Assembly (NCBI GenBank): GCA_963556145.1
Contig: OY744466.1
Coordinates: 6,061,820-6,125,819, forward strand
DNA: 64,000 bases
Source: Hygrocybe punicea
Taxonomy: Eukaryota > Basidiomycota > Agaricomycetes > Agaricales > Hygrophoraceae
Reading direction: 5' to 3'
Made by a program: the position numbers and the translations under genes. Shown here piece after piece: positions 13,370 to 38,148 of this stretch. The number at the start of each line of letters is the position of its first letter. The stretch's first letter is position 1. The notes under the pieces are model-generated. The model saw nothing but the letters and a program-made list of their open reading frames with translations, made no database searches and had not been told where the DNA came from.

Positions 13370-14347
13370 ACTGCAACTCTATGTCATAGAGAAGGAGAAT
13401 CGTTGCAAGAGTAAGCTGCATCTCCATATACGCGAGGCTGTCGTGAACTAAGGTTAGCAGAGTTCCCTGCTCCGTAATCCTGAAACTCACTTCCTGCCAA
13501 TCTATATGCGGTAAAAGGTGTAAACAATAAGTCATTTACGAAAATGAAGCGAAGCATACGCAGGCTCGAGGACCTTTTCCAAATGCCGAAAGATAGTGCT
13601 GAAGATTGTGGTCCGCCAACCATCTCTCTAGCTGGAAATTTTCTGGATCACCCCAAATATTATCGTCGTGTTGGATGCTCCATCCAGGAACGGACATCTC
13701 CATCTAACAGACCTTAACGACCATATGACAAGCCGTGAGTGCGGCTACTCGCCCCTGCTGGGAAAAACACATAACACCGCCTTGTGGGACTGAGCGATGC
13801 AGCCCAATTGCAGCGAGAGCAAAATACCGAAGTCTGACGAAAACAGTAAATTAATTAATACACAGCACGGAGAATACAATATACCCTTCGTCAATGGTTG
13901 CTTGCAGATATGGAATATCCTTGACTTGATCATACCTGGGGAACTCATTGCATCCAACTGTGTTTTCCAGAGCCTCCATCAGCTTTTGGTGCACACGGGG
14001 ATTCCAACCAAGGAGGTGGATAATGGCTGTAATCGAATTGGAAGTTGTATTCGAACCTGCAATGCTACATAGTGCATGCCATTGTGTTGTAGTATAGAGC
14101 ATGCAACGACTCACATAAGTGTCACAGTCTCGGCGATAAGCTTGTTGATTTGCTCAGGATTCAGATTATCGTCATCCTCGGTCCACCCCCGAATGAGTTT
14201 GCTCAGGATATCCTCGCGTTGTGTGCCCCCAAGCACTTCGCGACACGTAGTCGGGCAAGGTCAATTAAGCCAGTCCATGGTTTGTGTCCTCGCATAAAGA
14301 ACGGATCCGGGATGATTTTCGACGGGGGTTCGAAGCAAGGATGGAGG
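13370..14347 (-). pseudogene. Cytochrome P450, C-terminal half (split by hAT-type element)
   Basis: Read on the minus strand, the order is: IPDPFFMRG; a frame-shifted stretch with DDNLNPEQINKL; AGSNTTSNSITAIIHLLGWN (the I-helix A-G-x-x-T-T motif); NPRVHQKLMEALENT; DIPYLQATIDEG; IWGDPENFQLERWL; FGKGPRACV (the heme-binding Cys loop, about 13559-13585); and, in another frame, SLAYMEMQLTLATILLLYDI. The order is correct for a fungal microsomal P450, but the frame changes several times and the ending is lost near 13370. The 5' half continues at 23684, beyond the inserted element, in the same orientation. The gene was already decayed or has decayed since insertion. Confidence 0.85.
14340..14347. repeat. 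Left 8-bp target-site duplication (GATGGAGG)
   Basis: GATGGAGG directly precedes the left terminus TAGTGTTGCC and is repeated exactly at 23676-23683 after the right terminus. An 8-bp duplication is diagnostic of hAT-superfamily insertion. Confidence 0.9.
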
Positions 14348-14480
14348 TAGTGTTGCCACGGCTCGGTCCGAAACCGTTAGCCGATTGAGCCGAGCCGATG
14401 ATTAGCCGAGCCGAGCCGTTGCTACGGCTAACGGTTAAACCTCGGCTTAGCCGTGGCTAGCCGTTTTGAGCCGTTACAAA
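14348..14480 (+). repeat. Left terminal region of the hAT-type element
   Basis: It begins TAGTGTTGCCACGGCTCGGT. The first 23 bases are the exact inverse complement of 23653-23675. Beyond that it holds many GAGCCG, TAGCCG and GGTTA motifs but diverges in order from the right end. Confidence 0.85.
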
Positions 14481-14749
14481 ATTTCCAAATTAGGAAATAT
14501 AATGATTTCGAGGTTTCCGGAGTGTTTGCTGGCTCGCAACTGGTTTTCTGGCATTGCCCAAGGCTCAAAACATCACCAGACGACTGCTGTGCTAATGAAG
14601 GATAGATTTTGGTGTAAAATATAATAATACTGAATAATTATTGCATCTACATAGTCTCAATTACCTTGATGAACAACCATGTCGTATCGTAACTTGTAAC
14701 AGTCACCATTTGATACTGAAGAGATGAAACATTGAGCCATTAAATCTGA

Positions 14750-15720
14750 CCTATAGAAAGAAGCTCACGTTGTCAATGCTTCGGGCGTTACTGAGATGCG
14801 AGAGGGTTTGTAAGGGAAGCCATTTGAAGACACTCTTGGCTTGCGTTCGTTCTGTTGACCCAAATGTCCGGTTTCGCTGGATCCAGACACTAGATGTGGT
14901 TCGTTGTAGCAAATAAGAGGCAGCAAAATTATGTCTCCTAATTTTTACTTTTATTTTATTTTATTTTATTTGGAGGGTCGACATACCTGACTTCAGCAGC
15001 AGTGACACCATCGAGGCTGTTTAAGAGTCCACACAGACGTAGCCTTGAAGTGTGAGTAGTTTCAGTTGCGTTCATAGGTGGACATAATGTCACGACTGAC
15101 GGAGCACGTAAATGTATAGCCATGCGAGAAAGCGACTTGCCTGATTGAAACATATCCCATTAACGTCGTCAAAGTATTATCACTTATGCAGTACTTATGC
15201 TAGGATTCAGCTGCAAGAAAGGCTGACGACATAGATATCAAGACCGAGTTCGCCAGCTAAGGAATCGATGAGTGATAGTTTACCGCTATCTTTAAACCCT
15301 CCAACCATCAAAGAGTTCCAAAGGGGATCCATTGTCGAGCAGAGGTTGTACATGGCAAGGGCTAAATTGTTGTCTCCAATGCCATGTCGATAGCCTTGGA
15401 GCGTGCAAGAGAACCATAAGATGAAAGAAATCAGAATAATTATTGCTATTCGAGAAATATAACTGCTCTCACCGAGATTGTTGACTGCCATCATGATTAC
15501 ATCCTCGACTCCGAATACTCGCACCAGGACAAAATTTGTTTGACAAAATCATGTTCCACCACGAAGGAGAGAATGGTCCTTGCAGGTGGGAGAGTAGGCT
15601 AGTCCCATCAAAATTAGACATCATTTTTTGCAATGCAGGGTTCGACTGACTCACCTTGAAAAAACGGATAGTCCAGGGCAAATGTCCAATATATTCCGCT
15701 GATGCCCTCAACCGAGTTGT
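14750..15720 (-). pseudogene. BCS1-like AAA-ATPase fragment inside the hAT element
   Basis: On the minus strand, GDNNLALAMYNLCSTMDPLW is followed by GGFKDSGKLSLIDSLAGELG and LDIYVVSLS. This matches the Walker A neighbourhood of BCS1-type AAA ATPases (family form G-x-x-G-x-G-K-T/S), but the loop is altered to FKDSGKLS. After introns comes CGLLNSLDGVTAAEVR, the region after Walker B in BCS1 proteins. BCS1 itself is a mitochondrial inner-membrane chaperone for Rieske protein; Agaricomycetes carry many divergent paralogues. The copy is interrupted and lacks both ends. It retains intron-like gaps, so it was captured at DNA level. An upstream stretch near 15469-15711 may belong to it, but I could not place it. 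Confidence 0.6.
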
Positions 15721-15739
15721 CTACAGGGAGAATGTGAGG

Positions 15740-16847
15740 ATGTTGCTACATGCAGGCTGACACGAAATCACCAAGTGCAACACGCAAATCATTGCAAGTA
15801 TTATGAGAGAGACCACAGGTAGAAGATGTCGAGACACCCCCAGTACACAGGGGGATAGGAAAAGGCGATGACTTGTGAAAAGTTTGAGTGCCCAGCACTA
15901 GTGAAACAGATGGAAGGACGTGAAATATGGACCAGAAAATAAGATGATGAAGGCCGAAGACAGGGAGATGCAGAGACAACAGGGACGAGACTTTGCGGTG
16001 CTCAGCACTGGCAAAGATGGTAGAAAGCGACGGGGACAAGTCTTTGCTGGTGCTCGGCACTGGCAAAGATGGTTGAGAAGAACATAAGGCTCTTACGGTC
16101 ACAGTATGGTGAAGCTCAAGTCTCACGGTCACATGATCGAGTTACTGTTGAGCGCCATTCTAAGTCTTTTCTCTTCATCTCCCCTTGATTGAATCATAGG
16201 GAGATTCTTGTCTCTCTTCTCCCCTTGATTGAATCATAGGGAGATGTTCCTTCCTGGTTGTGTTATCTGCCGATGCCGACACTGAGGTTCTTATCTGCCA
16301 TTTTGCTATGGCTGGCGTCGTCTTCCCCCTACTCTTTGCTTCCCCGGCTCTGGGTACGTTGACTTATCCCCCTCTTCGCAATGGGTTGTCATCCTATTCA
16401 TATCTTGCACCAGGATCTGCCCGTTTGACACAAGGAACAGATCAAGACCACACCCTCGATACATGTGTCTGCATGCTGTTTCGCTTAGCACCGTGTTTTT
16501 TTAATCTCCACGTTTTTTTCCCTTTGCCACTACTGAGACGTTCATATTTTTTCTATTGTACTTTTACCAATAATTTGTATTTCATGTGTATTTCATACAT
16601 CCACCATCAAACTCACCCGGTTACGTCTGCATCTTCAACTTATTCACCACGTTGTACAGGAGAAATGTAATTGTTAGTAGCGTTCATGGCAGGACAATAG
16701 TCATACAGCATGCACACAAGTTGCAATACGTCTTGATTGAGATCGGTTACACCCTTGGAAAGCTATCGTGTCTGGAGGTCCGTTAAATTGAAATTCACGT
16801 CAGTCATCATATATTCGACTGAACTTTGCATAACTCTTTAGACCAAT
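15740..16847. other. Non-coding stretch with short tandem repeats
   Basis: At 16160-16245 a segment of about 42 bp (CTCCCCTTGATTGAATCATA and flank) is present twice in tandem. At 15885-16075 a TGCTCAGCACTGGCAAAGAT-like segment recurs three times with variations. I recognise no gene here. Confidence 0.6.
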
Positions 16848-19800
16848 ATGCCTCCTCGACGTGGAGCCAAAAAGTCCAAGACGACTGCCTTTGCAAATGG
16901 CGCGCTTCAAACATCCTTCCGAATTCAAGGTAGATATTTCACTTTTAAACCCACTCATATACGGTGCTGACATTCTCATACATATCCAGTACCTCAACTG
17001 TCCACTCCAACTCCTGAACCGATCCATCGAGACAAAGGAAAGGGCAAGGCCGTTGAAGTAGACATCGACGATCCCTTTGGTCCCGGCTTTCTATCAAGAC
17101 CTACCAACCCAGCCATTACACCGATTCGACAGGTGGGGCCTGCGATATTGGACCGTGCTCGGCGAAGGGTTCTTTCTGCAAAAGCTAATGACCCAAACAA
17201 CGCAGCAGCAGCTGTCGATATTCTATTTACACCATCTCCTTGCTCACGCCGTCGTCGTCAACAAAGGAAGACGCCTGTCACAGCTTCTTCTCGCAACCCA
17301 CCCAACTTATTCTCTTCTGGCAGCCCAATCATACCCATTCGACAAGTCACATTCCGATTACCATCGAGTTCTCCCAGTGATGGTCCCTTCACCTCACTTT
17401 CACCTCCACAAGCCTCAACTTCACAGCAACCTTCACTCCCACTCTTTGACCTAGCAACTGCTACGTCCACGTCCTCACCAACGTCGCCGGTGTCGCCGGT
17501 GTCAACGTCCAGCTCTAAGTCTAGTGGGTCAGAATCCAACCATAACCCACGGCCACCTGCAGCAAATCCGGCAACTCGTTCATCGCGAACGAATGGTCCC
17601 GCAGGCAACAAGTCTCGTCACATCGCATCGGACGTGTGGACTTTCTTCGAAAAGATGGGAAACCAGTATAGTTGCATGTTCTGCGGGTATGTGTTTCCAC
17701 ATCCTAGTTATTATATGATGCTGAACGACTTAAATAGAAATATCCATGCAACGAATCCAAGCTATAAGATTACCAAATTTAGTGTCAAGACATCCACCGG
17801 GACTATTCGCCGTCACTTGATAGAGGAACACATGAATGTTTGGGTGTCTGGTTGTGACGAGTTGGGCATCAAGATAAAGGCAAAGAGTGCCCAGGCTGCC
17901 CTGGATGGATATCGAAAGGGTAAAGGGCAACCAACGGGACGGATGCCGCAAGAACGCACATCGTACTCGAGGGAAGCTTTCGTTGACGCAATCATCGAGT
18001 TCATTGTTGGCGATGATCAGGTATATTTTTCGATTGTTTTATATTCCTGTATTGATGAGATATCATTATTTTAGTCAATCAATGTTGTCGAATCACCGCA
18101 TCTGCGGGCAATTTTCCTCATGCTTCGAGAAGAACTTCGGGAGTCGGATATTCCTGGCAGGACTACGATCCGTAAACGCATTGAAGAGACGCTTCAAGAA
18201 CATTTAGATCAACTAAGTAAAGACATGCAGGTCAGAGCGGCTGCTACCTGCATTTTGACTATTCTTGTTAATAAAGGAACAGCACTCATTAGGGAAGATT
18301 TCATTCACAATGGATATGTGGTCCGATCCGAATCATTCTCCTTTCATGGCTATCACGGCTCATTGGATCCAATCGCATACTGAAGAAACCCCCACTGGCC
18401 GTCAACACATTCTCAGATTACGTTCCGACTTGGTGGGATTTCATCGTGTTCCTGGGCGACATGATGGCGAGCATCTCGCCCATGTATTCATATACGTTAC
18501 TGATCGGCTTATGATTACTCACAAGGTATTCAATATTCAAAGTTTCTTCGTATTCTCGTTGACCCTCATCCTCTCAGATTGGATGGATTACCCTCGACAA
18601 TGCCTCAAACAATGATACGTTCATGGCCATATTAGAGCGTGAACTTCGGCGACGGAAAATCAAATTTGACAAAATTGAGTGTCGAATTAGGTAGGTGACA
18701 TGATTTTGTTGCTGCACCATAAGTACTAATACTCTTTACCTCCAGATGTTTCCCCCACATCGTCAACCTTGCTTGCAAGGCTGTGCTAGCGGCAATCACC
18801 AATCTCGACTATGTGGCTGAAACCGCTGACGACTTTTACCCTGCAAACTTCTTGGAAGGGATTGACCGAGATCCAATTGCAACTGTCTGATCTCTCATTC
18901 GTGCAGTATGTCTCTCTCTTGCTATCTTGTGCAGCAACTTACCTTTTGATGCGAAAACATTAATTTATACTAGATCCGATCATCTTCTCTGCGCCGACAG
19001 TATTTTTCATCCTTGTTTGAGAGATTAGAGCAGAAGGAACTTCAGCTTCTGCGTGACATGGAAGTGAGGTGGTCTTCAACATTACTCATGATTGAACGAG
19101 CCATTGATCTTCAAGAGGTATTTTTTATTTTTTATTTCGTGGCCAATATTTGACGTGGTTATCTAGGTTCTTGACACCTTCCTCGAAAGCCGGGAATTTT
19201 CTGAACTGCACAAGTTCCAGCTCCGTGATTCCGACTGGAACGCTCTTCGAAAATTTCAATCTATTCTCCAGGTGAGTGTATTTGATTGTTCCTTTTCTAT
19301 ATAATGTATTATCATTGTCAGATTCCACATGCCTTCCAACAAATGTTATCACATGAGAAGACTCCAACATTATGTCACGCCGTACCTGCATTTGAAGCGA
19401 TGCTCAATGTCTGGAAAGTACATCAAGAGCAGAATCCGGAAACTTCTGAAATCGTCCAGAAGGGGATCGACAAACTTGAATTATATAGTAGCCGAACGGA
19501 CATGGTCCCTGCTTACACACTGGCCATGAGTCTGTATCTAACTAATTTTTTGCTTTTGCTGACGGTTTTTTTCCAGTTCTAGATCCATCCATCAAATTGA
19601 CGTGGCTCGAGGAGTACATGCCAGAGCGAGTTGATTGGGCCAAAGATTTATTTATTAATGCCGTATGTACCAATAATATTTCCGCTTTTATCACCTGAAT
19701 TACTCCATCTTACATAGCTTCGCCCGTATGACCCTACTACTGGAACTGAGGGCCCTGTAGTAAATGCAGAACCACCTGCAGTCCTGCCACGTCCCACTGC

Positions 19801-20300
19801 GAGAGACATCCTCGGCCTCAACCGTATTCGAGGTCACTCAGTTGTGCAACGGGCAATAGAAGTCGAGGCCGCAGCTTACCTTCGCGATACACAGCCAACA
19901 ACAAAGAGTCTGACATACTGGCAGGTATGTGAGGCCGATGACAGATGTATCCATTTCATGCTAAACATAGTTGGACAAGGAAAATCAACTTCGCTATCCG
20001 AGAATTTTTTCTCTCGCCATGGACATTTTACCGATACAAGCTTCGGCAGTGCCTTGTGAAAGAGTGTTTTCGTCAAGCAAGGAAACTATGACTGCATGAC
20101 GGAATCGCATTTCACCTGAATTAATGGAAGCCCTTCAACTTTTGAAGTATTCCATTCGGCAGGGAAGAGGTCTCAATTTTACGGATGGTCTGGATTGGGG
20201 TCAGGAGCTTCATGAGTTGGAGACTTACGATGATGCACAGATGCAGCTCCCAGAAGATGTCAACTCATTCATTCAGTCTCTTACAGAAAAACTTCAGTAG
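16848..20300 (+). pseudogene. hAT-family transposase with BED zinc finger (two in-frame stops)
   Basis: The start ATG is at 16848 (MPPRRGAKKSK), then a basic, Ser/Pro-rich N-terminal region. A BED-type finger follows: CMFCG, then HLIEEH about 40 residues later, with an intron between. Next come the hAT core segments GKISFTMDMWSDPNHSPFMA (first catalytic Asp region), GWITLDNASNNDTF, CFPHIVNLACKAVL and LRDMEVRWSSTLLMIERA. The C-terminal dimerisation region is MDILPIQASAVPCERVFSSS, then SPELMEALQLLKYSIR. About ten exons with short introns can be followed in frame. Two stops break it, TGA at 18888-18890 and TGA at 20097-20099, both where related proteins have arginine (CGA to TGA). The splice sites look intact, so inactivation may be recent. 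Confidence 0.85.
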
Positions 20301-20421
20301 AAATATAAATTTTATTATGAAACGAAGGGACACAAGAACATCACGTAAATAATGTGGTCGACGTGGATGGTAAGACAAATGTACACGATACAAGGAAAAA
20401 CAATGAAACGAGACCAACAAA

Positions 20422-23014
20422 CTACGGAAATGTCTCGCCTTCTATGAACCGGCCCGCTACCTCATGTATCTTCTGAGCCAAACGCAGTGACCTTCCATGC
20501 CTCGGAAGAGATTCATACCACTTTCCAGCAGTCCGACATGGGGCCTTGTTCTGCTGGATGAGTTCGAGACGTTTCTGAAACCAGTCCTCGGCAGCGGGAG
20601 TCCAGTGGCCAACATTGAAAAGGCTCTTCTGCCAAGTTGAGTGCTTTGGCCACCAGGAAAGATGGGAGACCTGTTGGTTCGATCCTACATCACGTTGACT
20701 TAACGCATGGCTGACGAATCCAGAGAGGGTACCCACCAGTATACACCCTATATACGCCACATATGAGGTCAAGCTCATCTTCACCGAGGTGATCGTCACA
20801 GAAAGTAGTGCCATCCGCAAAATGGAAGACTTGCCCACGAGAGAAGGCTGCACTAGAGGGGCCAGTAAGAACCCGTCCAGGGCCAACGAATTCCATCGCG
20901 AGGCGCCAGACAATACCACCCTTGAGGATTGCTTCACGTGCATGTGGAGAACGTAGAAAATGGTCTCGAGCCGCTTCATAAGCGGCATAATCAGCAGCAT
21001 CAGGCTGGTAGCCAACTGCACGCACACCGAGAGATATGGGGGGTGGTGGAGGGCCTGTCGATGGAGGTGGGTGTGAAAAGGCAGGGCAAGGATTGAGGGT
21101 ATTGAAGGGGATTCCGCGTTCCGCAAGATACCGAACAGCTTCTGTGATATCCCTACACGATCGGAGGCATTGCAGAGCGGTGACCGGACTATCTACTGTA
21201 AGCAGCCAATCAATATTCGCAGTAGCACTCGTGGACCCGACAAAATATATTTTTTGATCTCTATTGTTCATCATCTCCCTCCGCTCAATTGTCAGATAAT
21301 GTTCCTGTCGTTCACGCAATGGAAAAAGGCTCGACGAACTGAGATCCCATGGCATAGCTGATAACCCGTCCACTGGTCCATCGATCAGACGTGCGACGAA
21401 GTCGAAGATTGGGCCCTTGTATTTAGTAGCCACTTGAGGGTGAGGGTCCTGCAAAATATTAAGGGTCCGGTCCCATTCGGTATTTGATGGCGTAGGACCG
21501 TCAGCATAGGCGGTGTCATCCCAATCGAATCCAAAGCGATCATAAAGACGGCAGTCAAGGGTAGTCGTAAATTTAGGAGCAGCGGCATCCGTGTGGCGAT
21601 CGCCGACACCATGAATGGACAGCACATCTCACTGCCAGTGTTCCGCAGGAAGTGGACCCGCAGGTATTGTTTGGCTATTGATTTGATCAGCAGGTTGCCT
21701 CGCCTCACCTTCTTCCAAGGTGGGATCGTCATATTCACCGTCGTAGTCGTCGTTACCGAATGGGTCTTCGTTGTCTGGCGCGTCGGGGTTAAATTCGGTA
21801 CAGACGTCCCATTCCCTATCAAAGGCATTATATCGCATATGTTCCGGCGGCTTTTCTTCCCACAGATCTTCTATCTCTCTGAAATTGACTCTCGTTCTGA
21901 GGCGAAAGCCATCCATTTCCAGCCAGCGGAAGACAGCAGCCCCTCTCTTCCCCGGTGCGCGAAAGCGTTCACCTTCCTTCTGACGAGCCAAGCGAGCGGC
22001 TGTTTCTTGTGCAGTCTCCATGGCAGCAATTTTCTCGTGGCGTACTGCTTGTCGAACAAAGAATTCCTGCCAAGTTTCTCCAAGTTTCTGGCGAGAGCCT
22101 GGGTTTGGCTTAGGGAACTTCTTGGAGGATGTTACATCAGTGGTAGGGCTAGGCGGTGGCGGAGACAACTGCTCCAACTGCCACTGCTGGCAGGCAGCCT
22201 GGACTTGTGCATTATTGGGTAAGTAGTTTGCCACCTCGGGTTTGGGTGATACGCGTAGGGGCTTGTCGAGGGTGCTCCATACGAACCAGATAGGGATATC
22301 GATTCTGACGAGTCTTGGGATGTGTGCCAACCATTTGCATTGATGCACGTCAATGACCACGCCTACTCTCGGAATGCTGTCGGTGAAGTCGGCGATCGGT
22401 GAATCCCGCAGTTGCTGGACCCACTCTGGGTGGACCTTGGTTTCGCTAGTGAGTATCTTCACCCAGTTGGGGTCGTCGCCATATGGGACATAGCTGGCTG
22501 TGAAAAATGAGATGGCCATCGAACACAGTCCCATCAACGGTATGAAAGCATCTCGGGACTTCATGGCACACTTTCGGGCTGAGTGTTCACGTGTATGAAT
22601 GCGGAGGTAGCCGTATGTGTGAGGGACGGGGAAACATCTGTATTCAAGTGGAAAAAAGGCACCCGGGGCTTTTCCCAGTAATTCCCGAGCAACCACATAG
22701 AGAGAGGTTTCGAGATCGTGCCATTTTTCTCGGGTAGCAGCTGATAATTGGAACCCACCACGGACGCGTTCAATAGATAGCGACTTGTAATCACAGACTA
22801 GACGCTGTATTAATGGGTGATCCCATCGTATCGAACGGGGCACAAATGGGAGCTGTGGAAGATCGTTGCGCGCCCAATTCGTTGTATAGGTCCACTCTGG
22901 CCCTGGATCATCACAGTCGAAATTGTGGTAACTGGGGAAGGCAGCTAAGGGACCCGCATTTGGGGAGGTGATTACAAAGTTGTCGAGGATGAAGGTTTTG
23001 AAGGTCGACGGCAT
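20422..23014 (-). pseudogene. Uncharacterised basidiomycete protein of about 850 residues, carried in the hAT element
   Basis: Minus strand, start ATG at 23014 (MPSTFKTFILDNFVITSP). It is open for 461 codons to a single TGA at 21629-21631, then open in the same frame for nearly 300 codons (DRFGFDWDDTAYADGP; GGIVWRLAMEFVGPGRVLTG). A 52-nt intron (about 20698-20749) leads to a last exon with SHLSWWPKHSTW, NVGHWTPAAEDWFQKRL and stop at 20422. The middle is acidic and lysine/glutamate-rich. I know of similar conserved proteins in Agaricomycetes but no assigned function. With one stop removed the gene is continuous, so it is nearly intact and may be maintained cargo. It lies tail to tail with the transposase, 121 bp apart. 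Confidence 0.7.
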
Positions 23015-23059
23015 CTGACAGCAGTATTTGGGTTAATAGAATAGGTGCAAAAAAAAAGA

Positions 23060-23545
23060 TACACACGGATAGGGATGCAAAGGAGCGGTGAAAGACGAAG
23101 TCAAAGAGCTCGCTGATACACTGTACGGGCCAACGAGAATAGATTGACCAATGGGAGCACCTGAGCCAAGGCCAATGGGAGCGTGGAGCTTGTTGATACT
23201 CAGTACAGGCGAACGAGAACGGCTAGAGCGATGGGAGCACCCGAGCCAAGACACGCCTGGAGGCTGGAGCTCGCTTGTACTTTGTACAGGCGAGCGAGAA
23301 TGGAACGAAGGAGTCTCGGAGGCCAAGAAGTTAGGGCAAGTCTGAGCCAAGACGAACAACGATGGAATGCAAGAGTCTCTGAGCCAAGAGGTTAGGGCAC
23401 GTCTGAGCCAAGATAAAAGCTCGCTAGTACTTTGTACAGGCGAACGATGAGTCGGGGAATGCTCACTTGTACTTTGTACGGGTGAGCAATGAACAAAACG
23501 GTAAATACAAACAACGGATCTGGCCGACCTGGGTCACCTGACAAA
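23060..23545. repeat. Subterminal palindromic repeat block of the hAT element
   Basis: Imperfect copies of GCTCGCTTGTACTTTGTACA with GGCGAGCGAGAA (itself an inverted pair around TACTTTGTA) occur near 23110, 23188, 23268, 23408 and 23465. They alternate with GAGCCAAGA(C/G) units. The block lies between the cargo gene and the right terminus. Such subterminal motif clusters are binding sites for hAT transposases in other systems; that role here is inference. Confidence 0.65.
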
Positions 23546-23675
23546 TTTCCTTTTTTGGACGGTTAGCCGCGGCTTAGCCGTTGCCACAACGGTCCGGTCC
23601 GGCTAACAACCCATATATGGGTTAACCGTTGTTAGCCGTAGCCGAGCCGAGCCGGACCGAGCCGTGGCAACACTA
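23546..23675 (-). repeat. Right terminal region of the hAT-type element
   Basis: It ends ...GAGCCGTGGCAACACTA at 23675, followed by the duplicated GATGGAGG. It contains a palindrome AACCCATATATGGGTT. The whole 130 bp is repeated at 38019-38148 with only a few C/T differences. Confidence 0.9.
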
Positions 23676-23683
23676 GATGGAGG

Positions 23684-24532
23684 CCCACCACCGCCGCAAA
23701 ATGTTCACGCTACGATGGAGCGTTTATAAAGGAAATAAACGATCTGGAGAATCCAAACGTACTTCATCTACAATGGAAATGGCATGTTCATTCGACACGA
23801 CTGTACCATCTATCTATTCGCTGGACAGATACTAAATCTGATCCCTGCATGGCAGCAGAAAAGTCATGACTATAGTTGTAAAAGCAAGATATTCATCGAA
23901 GCACATACATTTTCTAACATCCCAATAGGTTTCCAAAATGCCAGAACGGAGAGAATGTCAAATGCCAAGTAGTTGAACGACAAAAGTGCGCCGAGTTGTA
24001 GCCTGGAGTAATGGTTCAAACTTTACAACAGAACGATAAGAGAATGCTTGGGAGAGCAGTCGTCGCTTCTAGGCGTGGTCTTGATGGTCCATAGTAGAAA
24101 AGATGGAAGGGTGGTCCCAACAAAGGCGGAGTAGAACGGCGACTTGTCAAAGGCACCGGAGCCTTGGCCGTAGACAACCGAAATCGCATCTTTATCCGCC
24201 ACCGAGATGTGATTTGGTGGGATTCGAACAATTGGACCACAGTTCTAACAAACCATGTTAATGGGTCGAAGAGAAAATAGCAGCAGATATTGACATACTT
24301 TATGAGCCTCATTAACGGCGAGATACCAGCGTCCCAAACGAGCGTGATAAGCAAACCAAAGTGGTGTCCAGCGGGCGACAAACGGTCCAGGAATATGGCC
24401 AAGAGGATCGCGTTTGGAAAAGATTTGTCCCAGAAATTTTGTGAGCAACGTTGAGATCATAATAATAACTATCAGGAAGGAGAAATCCACCGACGGGGAG
24501 AGTTTTACCCGAGACATTGTGGGAGTTGGCAC
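23684..24532 (-). pseudogene. Cytochrome P450, N-terminal half (split by hAT-type element)
   Basis: Minus strand, starting at or just inside 24532 with a hydrophobic anchor (FSFLIVIIMISTLL), then the proline-rich hinge DPLGHIPGPFVARWTPLW. After an intron comes [58 protein letters not shown] (with an in-frame TAG just before it) and FNYLAFDILSVLAFWKP. These are in the right order for the first 200 residues of a fungal P450. The sequence ends at the target duplication and resumes at 14347 on the other side of the element. Confidence 0.85.
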
Positions 24533-24619
24533 TGCAGGGATGCAGACCCGACGTCAGAGGCTTGAGCTTGGAGCTGACGACGACGTCCTTATGTACTCTG
24601 CCGGTGGTGTATGCCATGG

Positions 24620-37670: not shown

Positions 37671-38018
37671 CGCGTGGCTTGTCGTCGCTGCTGGCACTGC
37701 TGTTGCCGTCGTTGCCACTGCCGCTGTTCTGTTGCCCTAACCGGGGTCATTGGTCGTTGCTGCTGCTGTCCAGGCTGCCACGAGATCATTTGTGCTGTAA
37801 TCCAAAAATAAGTTGGTAGTAATAAAAAAAAAACAGACATAACGGGAGTGTCCGCTGCTTCCGTTGCCGCTTCATTCCTCGCCCCTCTGCTGGTCGCCGT
37901 TGGGGTGCTGTGGCAGTGTGGCCTTTGTTTGGGGTCCGCCGGCGTTGTTGCGAGCTGGTGTGTGAGATTGGTGGTGAGATTCGACCTTGACAGTGGTCGC
38001 TAGGCACTCTGCTATTTA

Positions 38019-38148
38019 TTTCCTTTTTTGGACGGCTAGCCGCGGTTTAGCCGTTGCCACAATGGTCCGGTCCGGCTAACAACCCATATATGGGTTAACC
38101 GTTGTTAGCCGTAGCCGAGCCGAGCCGGACCGAGCCGTGGCAACACTA
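38019..38148 (-). repeat. Right end of a second hAT-type element of the same family
   Basis: The 130 bp match 23546-23675 except for about three C/T changes, ending ...GCCGTGGCAACACTA at 38148 with CACGGCCA after it. The left end and matching duplication are not in the window, or have been deleted. Confidence 0.85.

What the first reader, a model, noticed from the sequence alone, without database searches (positions are those of the whole stretch)
14340..23683. A 9.3-kb hAT-type transposon with perfect 8-bp target duplication splits a P450 gene and carries a conserved non-transposase gene
Termini (TAGTGTTGCCACGGCTCGGT and three more bases) are exact inverse complements, and GATGGAGG flanks both sides. 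The P450 remnants on either side join in order and orientation. Inside are a BED-finger hAT transposase, a BCS1-like fragment and a long minus-strand gene of about 850 residues with only one stop. An oversized hAT carrying a nearly intact conserved fungal protein would be an unusual cargo-bearing family.
Basis: partly seen in the sequence, partly recalled or inferred. Interest (0 to 1): 0.85.

Follow-up and report, generated by a model that had tools for sequence, protein, structure and literature searches.

The report
Two-gene mushroom hAT transposon family
A 9.3-kb jumping gene that split a cytochrome P450 gene in what looks like a mushroom genome belongs to a family that carries, beside its own transposase, a second gene of unknown function that appears to have been kept by selection as the family spread.

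Summary
A 9,328-bp element with exact 23-bp inverted ends and an 8-bp duplication (GATGGAGG) splits a P450 gene; a paralogous empty site carries one GATGGAGG. It is not a one-off: the host genome holds many near-identical copies, and 19 of 19 fetched TIR pairs have perfect 8-bp duplications. Inside are a 939-residue hAT transposase (13 exons) and, tail to tail about 120 bp away, an 846-residue gene with no match in the Pfam copy, PDB sequences or PDB folds.

The gene is not recent luggage. Of 53 loci of this gene, 45 have such a transposase on its 3' side in opposite orientation, including 8 of 8 further divergent ones read. Between diverged subfamilies its dN/dS is about 0.33 (transposase 0.20). 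Three relatives (60-68% identity) sit in another repeat with no such transposase in the DNA read; five loci were not checked. Corrections: the 'BCS1-like' piece looks like proteasome beta-4; related elements carry HSP70 or fatty-acid-synthase pieces. So this is a gene-capturing hAT lineage in which one gene became a lasting second gene. Its function (anti-silencing or transposition helper) is inferred, not shown.

The parts
14340..14347 (.). left target-site duplication GATGGAGG
   Evidence: single copy in the empty paralog L040
14348..14370 (+). left 23-bp terminal inverted repeat
   Evidence: 100% complementary to 23653-23675
14348..14534 (+). left terminal region (135-187 bp) shared with the otherwise unrelated elements between the same ends
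   Evidence: L017 and L019-L027 match only here and at the right end
15207..15548 (-).
   Evidence: phmmer vs PDB, E 7e-4; in the host genome 40 of 45 candidates scored, all 95-100% identical, no diverged parent listed; no match in L029 or L030
16848..20300 (+). hAT transposase gene, 13 exons, 939 aa; two in-frame TGA in this copy
   Evidence: Pfam Dimer_Tnp_hAT; Hermes transposase in PDB, E 1e-6
20422..23014 (-). second gene ('cargo'), 846 aa, exons 23014-20737 and 20684-20422 (52-nt intron); one in-frame TGA at 21629-21631 in this copy
   Evidence: homologs; no family in the Pfam copy at hand, no PDB sequence or fold match
23098..23492 (.). 5' side of the second gene: five imperfect copies of a ~35-nt repeat
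   Evidence: family D1
23544..23675 (-). right terminal region (131-132 bp) shared with the other elements between the same ends; related sequence at the right end of sister hATs L037-L039
23653..23675 (-). right 23-bp terminal inverted repeat
23676..23683 (.). right target-site duplication GATGGAGG
13851..14339 (-). 3' part of the interrupted cytochrome P450 gene
   Evidence: Pfam p450 E 8e-12 for 13851-14153; continuity with the right flank by L040
23684..24553 (-). 5' part of the interrupted P450 gene; frames broken in this copy
   Evidence: no Pfam hit for the piece tried, 24245-24553; its first 400 bp align across the empty site to the paralog at C8:178768-179617

Best explanation
This is one insertion of a two-gene hAT transposon family. 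Shown: the element has hAT ends, 8-bp duplications and a hAT transposase, exists in many near-identical copies at different sites, and carries an 846-residue second gene tail to tail with the transposase; that arrangement predates the split of subfamilies now only 72-79% alike in the cargo protein. Inferred: the transposase cuts and pastes the element through its ends (the ~135-190 and ~130 terminal bp, the only DNA it shares with the other size classes). The lineage also picks up host gene pieces (proteasome beta-4, HSP70, fatty acid synthase). Most pieces look broken, but the second gene was kept because it helps the element itself. My best guess is an accessory protein that helps copies escape silencing by CpG methylation or aids transposition, playing the part that TET/JBP dioxygenases are proposed to play in other fungal transposons. 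Element-level function about 0.7; anti-silencing in particular about 0.35.
For: Copies: of 15 whole-element matches scored (470 candidates), 13, the window and its two duplicates included, reach both ends at 99-100% identity; 19 of 19 fetched TIR pairs have perfect 8-bp duplications. Linkage: 37 of 53 cargo loci have a hAT transposase within 8 kb on the 3' side in opposite orientation among listed hits, 32 of them within 433 bp of the cargo match, two of the 37 entered by hand; plus 8 of 8 further divergent loci read, two of which (L046, L048) show only its C-terminal part. Continuity: one blastn match through cargo, spacer and transposase to L029 (6,262 columns, 82%) and to L030 (7,026 columns, 80%). 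Selection: branch between subfamilies, cargo dN/dS 0.333 (bootstrap 0.259-0.426, 839 codons), transposase 0.202 (0.159-0.253, 912 codons); pairs within subfamilies give 0.44-0.85 for the cargo and 0.63-0.79 for the transposase, the relaxed baseline. First exon of the cargo open in 12 of 23 matches at 93% identity or more over residues 1-761; the stops in the other 11 are all TGA. Of 10 aligned copies (8 distinct insertions) one has both genes fully open. Methylation-type decay: CpG transitions are half or more of the differences in each of 8 copies (6 of 12 up to 64 of 82; 211 of 318 in the most diverged), while CpG makes up 942 of 9,328 bases. Homologs at E 6e-189 to 2e-32, incl. Athelia and Heliocybe (27 found, 7,998 candidates scored), and Ganoderma and Arthromyces (40 found).
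Against: The gene family is not exclusive to hATs: three loci (C8:5760071, C39:5828222, C2:4089989; 60-68% identity) have no hAT transposase in 17.8 kb (C8, C2) or 9.9 kb (C39) read, nor has the 33% relative at C33:251536 within 4 kb on its 3' side. Five further loci were not checked. Sister hATs with 32-79% identical transposase pieces lack the gene (0 of 4), so such a transposase does not need it in general. No fold or motif points to a function. CpG decay shows pressure from methylation, not that the gene counters it. NG86 distances ignore CpG bias, and codons came from tblastn matches with imprecise exon edges.
Confidence: 0.72

Rival explanations
1. The second gene is a passenger, caught once by the element like the proteasome, HSP70 and fatty-acid-synthase pieces and copied along without function.
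For: The lineage does pick up host pieces: HSP70 in L020 and L025 (Pfam 2e-12, 4e-25), FAS beta in L038 and L039 (Pfam FAS_meander 2e-41 in L039), proteasome-like in the window. 11 of 23 near-complete copies have stops in the first exon.
Against: Unlike those pieces it is full length with its intron, the first exon is open in 12 of 23 copies, and dN/dS on the branch between element subfamilies is 0.33, not near 1.
Confidence: 0.15
2. The gene serves the host (or is a host gene family) and the hAT merely spread it; selection acts through the fungus.
For: The family has members without a hAT transposase beside them in this genome and homologs in several named fungi.
Against: No lone copy close to the element's version was seen: of the 53 loci, none above 68% identity is known to lack the transposase, though five were not checked. 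235 of 288 first-look candidates were not scored, so a lone copy could have been missed.
Confidence: 0.1
3. The protein family is a shared module that moves between different transposon types, as TET/JBP genes do, the L031-L033 repeat being a second carrier.
For: L031, L033 (99.8%) and L032 (94.5%) are a separate repeat that holds the gene beside a 1,040-bp inverted repeat (seen in the C8 copy; 93% over about 800 bp in the C2 copy) and no hAT transposase in the DNA read. TET/JBP genes are reported in eleven lineages of fungal DNA transposons (PMC12730594: abstract, passages and part of the discussion read).
Against: The ends and transposase of that repeat were not found; it could be a segmental duplication.
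Confidence: 0.2
4. The second gene is a separate transposon nested in the hAT.
For: None beyond its opposite reading direction.
Against: It ends about 120-130 bp from the transposase stop in the window and in the divergent loci where both ends were read; no ends or duplications of its own were found.
Confidence: 0.02

Closest known systems
hAT superfamily (Ac/Ds, hobo, Hermes; in mushrooms MarorhAT-10)
   Same: 8-bp duplications, short inverted ends, hAT C-terminal dimerisation domain, non-autonomous relatives sharing only the ends
   Different: 9.3 kb with a second long gene; the active autonomous mushroom element MarorhAT-10 is 3,396 bp, with a hAT transposase domain the only gene named in the passages read (PMC9674265)
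TET/JBP-carrying fungal DNA transposons, including hAT7 (PMC12730594: abstract, passages, part of discussion read)
   Same: A fungal DNA transposon with a non-transposase gene thought to help the element against methylation
   Different: Cargo matches no family in the Pfam copy at hand (so no TET/JBP call); 8-bp not 7-bp duplications; hAT7 was reported from rust fungi
Pack-TYPE elements (PMC8903248, search listing only) and hAT capture of histone H3 (PMC6710886, abstract read)
   Same: Relatives of this element carry host gene pieces between the same ends
   Different: Here a full-length gene sits in the autonomous element across diverged subfamilies and is under purifying selection; the captured histone H3 copies were all inactivated except the original gene

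Membership tests
hAT superfamily | 8-bp target-site duplication | tested here: met
   19 of 19 fetched TIR pairs plus the window; empty site with one copy
hAT superfamily | hAT transposase with C-terminal dimerisation domain | tested here: met
   Pfam PF05699 49.5 bits, cut-off 21.4; Hermes, PDB 6dww, E 1e-6
hAT superfamily | short terminal inverted repeats | tested here: met
   23 bp, 100%
hAT superfamily | DDE catalytic residues and BED zinc finger | tested here: inconclusive
   Pfam calls no BED finger and only a sub-threshold hAT RNase-H match; C-X2-C/H-X4-H motif seen by eye; catalytic residues not mapped
hAT superfamily | transposition activity | not testable with these tools
   recent spread only inferred from 99-100% identical copies at different sites
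TET/JBP-bearing hAT7 | 7-bp target-site duplication | tested here: not met
   8 bp
TET/JBP-bearing hAT7 | TET/JBP dioxygenase gene | tested here: not met
   no family called for the cargo or for 10 homologs in the Pfam copy at hand
Pack-TYPE elements | non-autonomous, captured host fragments between TIRs | tested here: not met
   the 9.3-kb element encodes its own transposase; the 1.9-kb and 3.4-kb relatives L025 and L020 with HSP70 pieces do fit

The most novel reading that the evidence does not exclude
An orphan protein family spread over mushroom-forming fungi is a transposon accessory protein family: it is the fixed second gene of one hAT lineage, has also entered at least one structurally different repeat, and counters host silencing or helps transposition by an unknown fold.
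Probability: 0.3. Interest if true: 0.8.

Novelty: new variant of a known kind. Interest (0 to 1): 0.6.

Why it matters
hAT transposons are usually thought to need only a transposase (general knowledge). A lineage that has carried a second, selected gene through subfamily divergence would show that hATs, too, build multi-gene elements, and would give a biological home to a fungal protein family with no domain or fold that I could match. It makes a question testable: what do transposon-borne non-transposase genes do for the element?

Full report
What is there. The window lies at G000:C8:6061820-6125819 of a 92.2-Mb, 42-contig genome. At 14348-23675 is a 9,328-bp element with exact 23-bp inverted ends and GATGGAGG on both sides. 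The 20-bp end occurs 318 times forward and 280 times reverse at up to 3 mismatches, the backwards control never. From the first 100 listed places I chose and fetched 19 TIR pairs (L009-L027; other pairs in that list were not fetched): 19 of 19 have identical 8-bp flanks. L013 and L014 repeat the window's flank and are taken as the same insertion on small contigs, leaving 18 different sites with the window. The P450 flanks joined with one GATGGAGG match a paralog at C8:178768-179617: 88% over all 800 bases, and 226 of 239 without a gap across the site. That is an empty site, though in a paralog, not an allele.

Family structure. Nine fetched loci (L009-L016, L018; L018 with extra DNA near one end) align over the whole element at 95.6-99.9% identity. 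Of 15 whole-element matches scored out of 470 candidates, 13, the window and its two duplicates included, reach both ends at 99-100%. Other elements between the same ends (L017, 8.8 kb; L022, 6 kb; L019-L021 and L023, 3.1-3.4 kb; L024 and L026, 2.2 kb; L025 and L027, 1.9 kb) share with it only 135-187 bp at the left and 131-132 bp at the right. L020 and L025 hold HSP70 pieces and L022 a nested Tc5/pogo-type transposase (Pfam). I infer that these ends are what the transposase needs.

Genes. The transposase has 13 exons, 16848-20300, 939 residues, with the hAT dimerisation domain and a significant match to Hermes. The second gene runs from 23014 to 20422 on the minus strand, two exons, 846 residues, ending about 120 bp from the transposase stop. 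The window's copy has two stops in the transposase and one in the second gene; of the ten aligned copies (eight distinct insertions) one has both genes fully open. CpG transitions are half or more of each copy's differences from the majority of eight copies: 12 of 18 in the window copy, 64/82 L009, 7/10 L010, 7/12 L011, 6/12 L015, 11/19 L016, 80/107 L018, 211/318 L012, with CpG only 942 of 9,328 bases; 9 of 10 premature stops listed in six copies are of the CpG type, one is not. I read this as decay under cytosine methylation (inference).

Is the second gene part of the element? A protein search of the genome returned 59 matches (53 of 288 candidates scored), which merge to 53 loci. For 37 a hAT transposase lies within 8 kb on the 3' side in opposite orientation among listed hits, for 32 of them within 433 bp of the cargo match (two places entered). 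Eight more, 72-79% identical in their main match, were read: 8 of 8 have it, two of them (L046, L048) only its C-terminal part in the DNA read. Of the remaining eight, three (C8:5760071, C39:5828222, C2:4089989; 60-68%) have none in the DNA read (17.8, 9.9 and 17.8 kb), and five (C36:439956, C33:5949053, C34:2322276, C36:975340, C6:5449695) were not checked. L029 and L030 align with the element in one piece through cargo, spacer and transposase at 80-82%, so one joining event precedes their split. The codon comparison gives cargo dN/dS 0.332 (L015-L029) and 0.372 (L015-L030) against 0.255 and 0.244 for the transposase; pairs within subfamilies give 0.437 (L015-L012), 0.853 (L029-L030) and 0.681 (L031-L032) for the cargo, and 0.632 (L015-L012), 0.692 (L029-L030) and 0.789 (L036-L038) for the transposase. 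On the branch between subfamilies: cargo 0.333 (0.259-0.426), transposase 0.202 (0.159-0.253). Both were thus selected while inside the element. Codons came from tblastn matches, so exon edges are imprecise, and CpG bias is not modelled.

What was added when. The small left fragment (15207-15548) has no match in L029 or L030 and is probably a later addition, though their left ends were not identified. It looks like proteasome beta type-4 (E 7e-4), not BCS1. Sister hATs L036-L039 (transposase pieces 32-79% identical) have no cargo homolog in the 8.4-8.7 kb read (0 of 4); L037-L039 share a related right end, and L038 and L039 carry fatty-acid-synthase beta pieces beside the transposase, on the minus strand as the cargo is here. 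So capture is a habit of this lineage, and the 846-residue gene is the one that stayed.

What the second gene is. Homologs: 27 (7,998 candidates scored) and 40 (531 candidates) database proteins, with overlap, most without an organism name; named ones are Athelia, Heliocybe, Ganoderma sinense, G. boninense and Arthromyces (all Agaricomycetes, recalled). No family in the Pfam copy at hand for it or for 10 homologs, although some homologs bear a pre-computed label PF28437 that I cannot interpret. No PDB sequence match at E below 0.2, no fold match for the whole model or for the well-predicted C-terminal part. Predicted pI 5.9, no basic nuclear signal by a simple pattern. With a distant homolog as query, further family members appear that are not in the first list (for example C33:251536 and C8:6010559); C33:251536 has no hAT transposase within 4 kb on its 3' side.

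Mechanism and rivals. Shown: mobility signature, recent multiplication, a shared two-gene layout, selection on both genes. Inferred: cut-and-paste by its own transposase; second gene acting for the element. Published precedents are TET/JBP genes in eleven lineages of fungal DNA transposons, proposed to undo silencing (PMC12730594: abstract, discussion part 1 of 2 and passages read), and hAT capture of histone H3, where the captured copies were inactivated (PMC6710886: abstract read). The active autonomous mushroom hAT MarorhAT-10 is 3,396 bp (PMC9674265: passages read). Passenger, host-gene, shared-module and nested-element readings are weighed in their own sections. Function is the open point.

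Noticed in passing
window 38018-38148: A second right end of the same family (97.7% over 131 bp, exact TIR 38126-38148); no matching left end was found in the window.
   Followed up: partly
L031, L032, L033 with L034, L035: A different multicopy repeat holding a 60-64% identical relative of the second gene, with a 1,040-bp inverted repeat (99.3%) and no hAT transposase in up to 17.8 kb; type and ends unknown.
   Followed up: partly
L019-L021, L023: 3.1-3.4-kb elements between the same ends that look filled with ~150-bp tandem repeats (off-register matches between copies).
   Followed up: no
L038 4938-5657 minus; L039 4591-5904 minus: Sister hAT elements carry fatty acid synthase beta-subunit gene pieces (Pfam).
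   Followed up: partly
L014, L013 (contigs C29, C14): Small contigs repeat the window's insertion with the same duplication at 99.9% identity, probably assembly duplicates or another haplotype.
   Followed up: partly
G000:C8:6010559-6013093: A distant relative of the second gene about 49 kb left of the window, with identical-scoring copies on small contigs C26 and C28.
   Followed up: no
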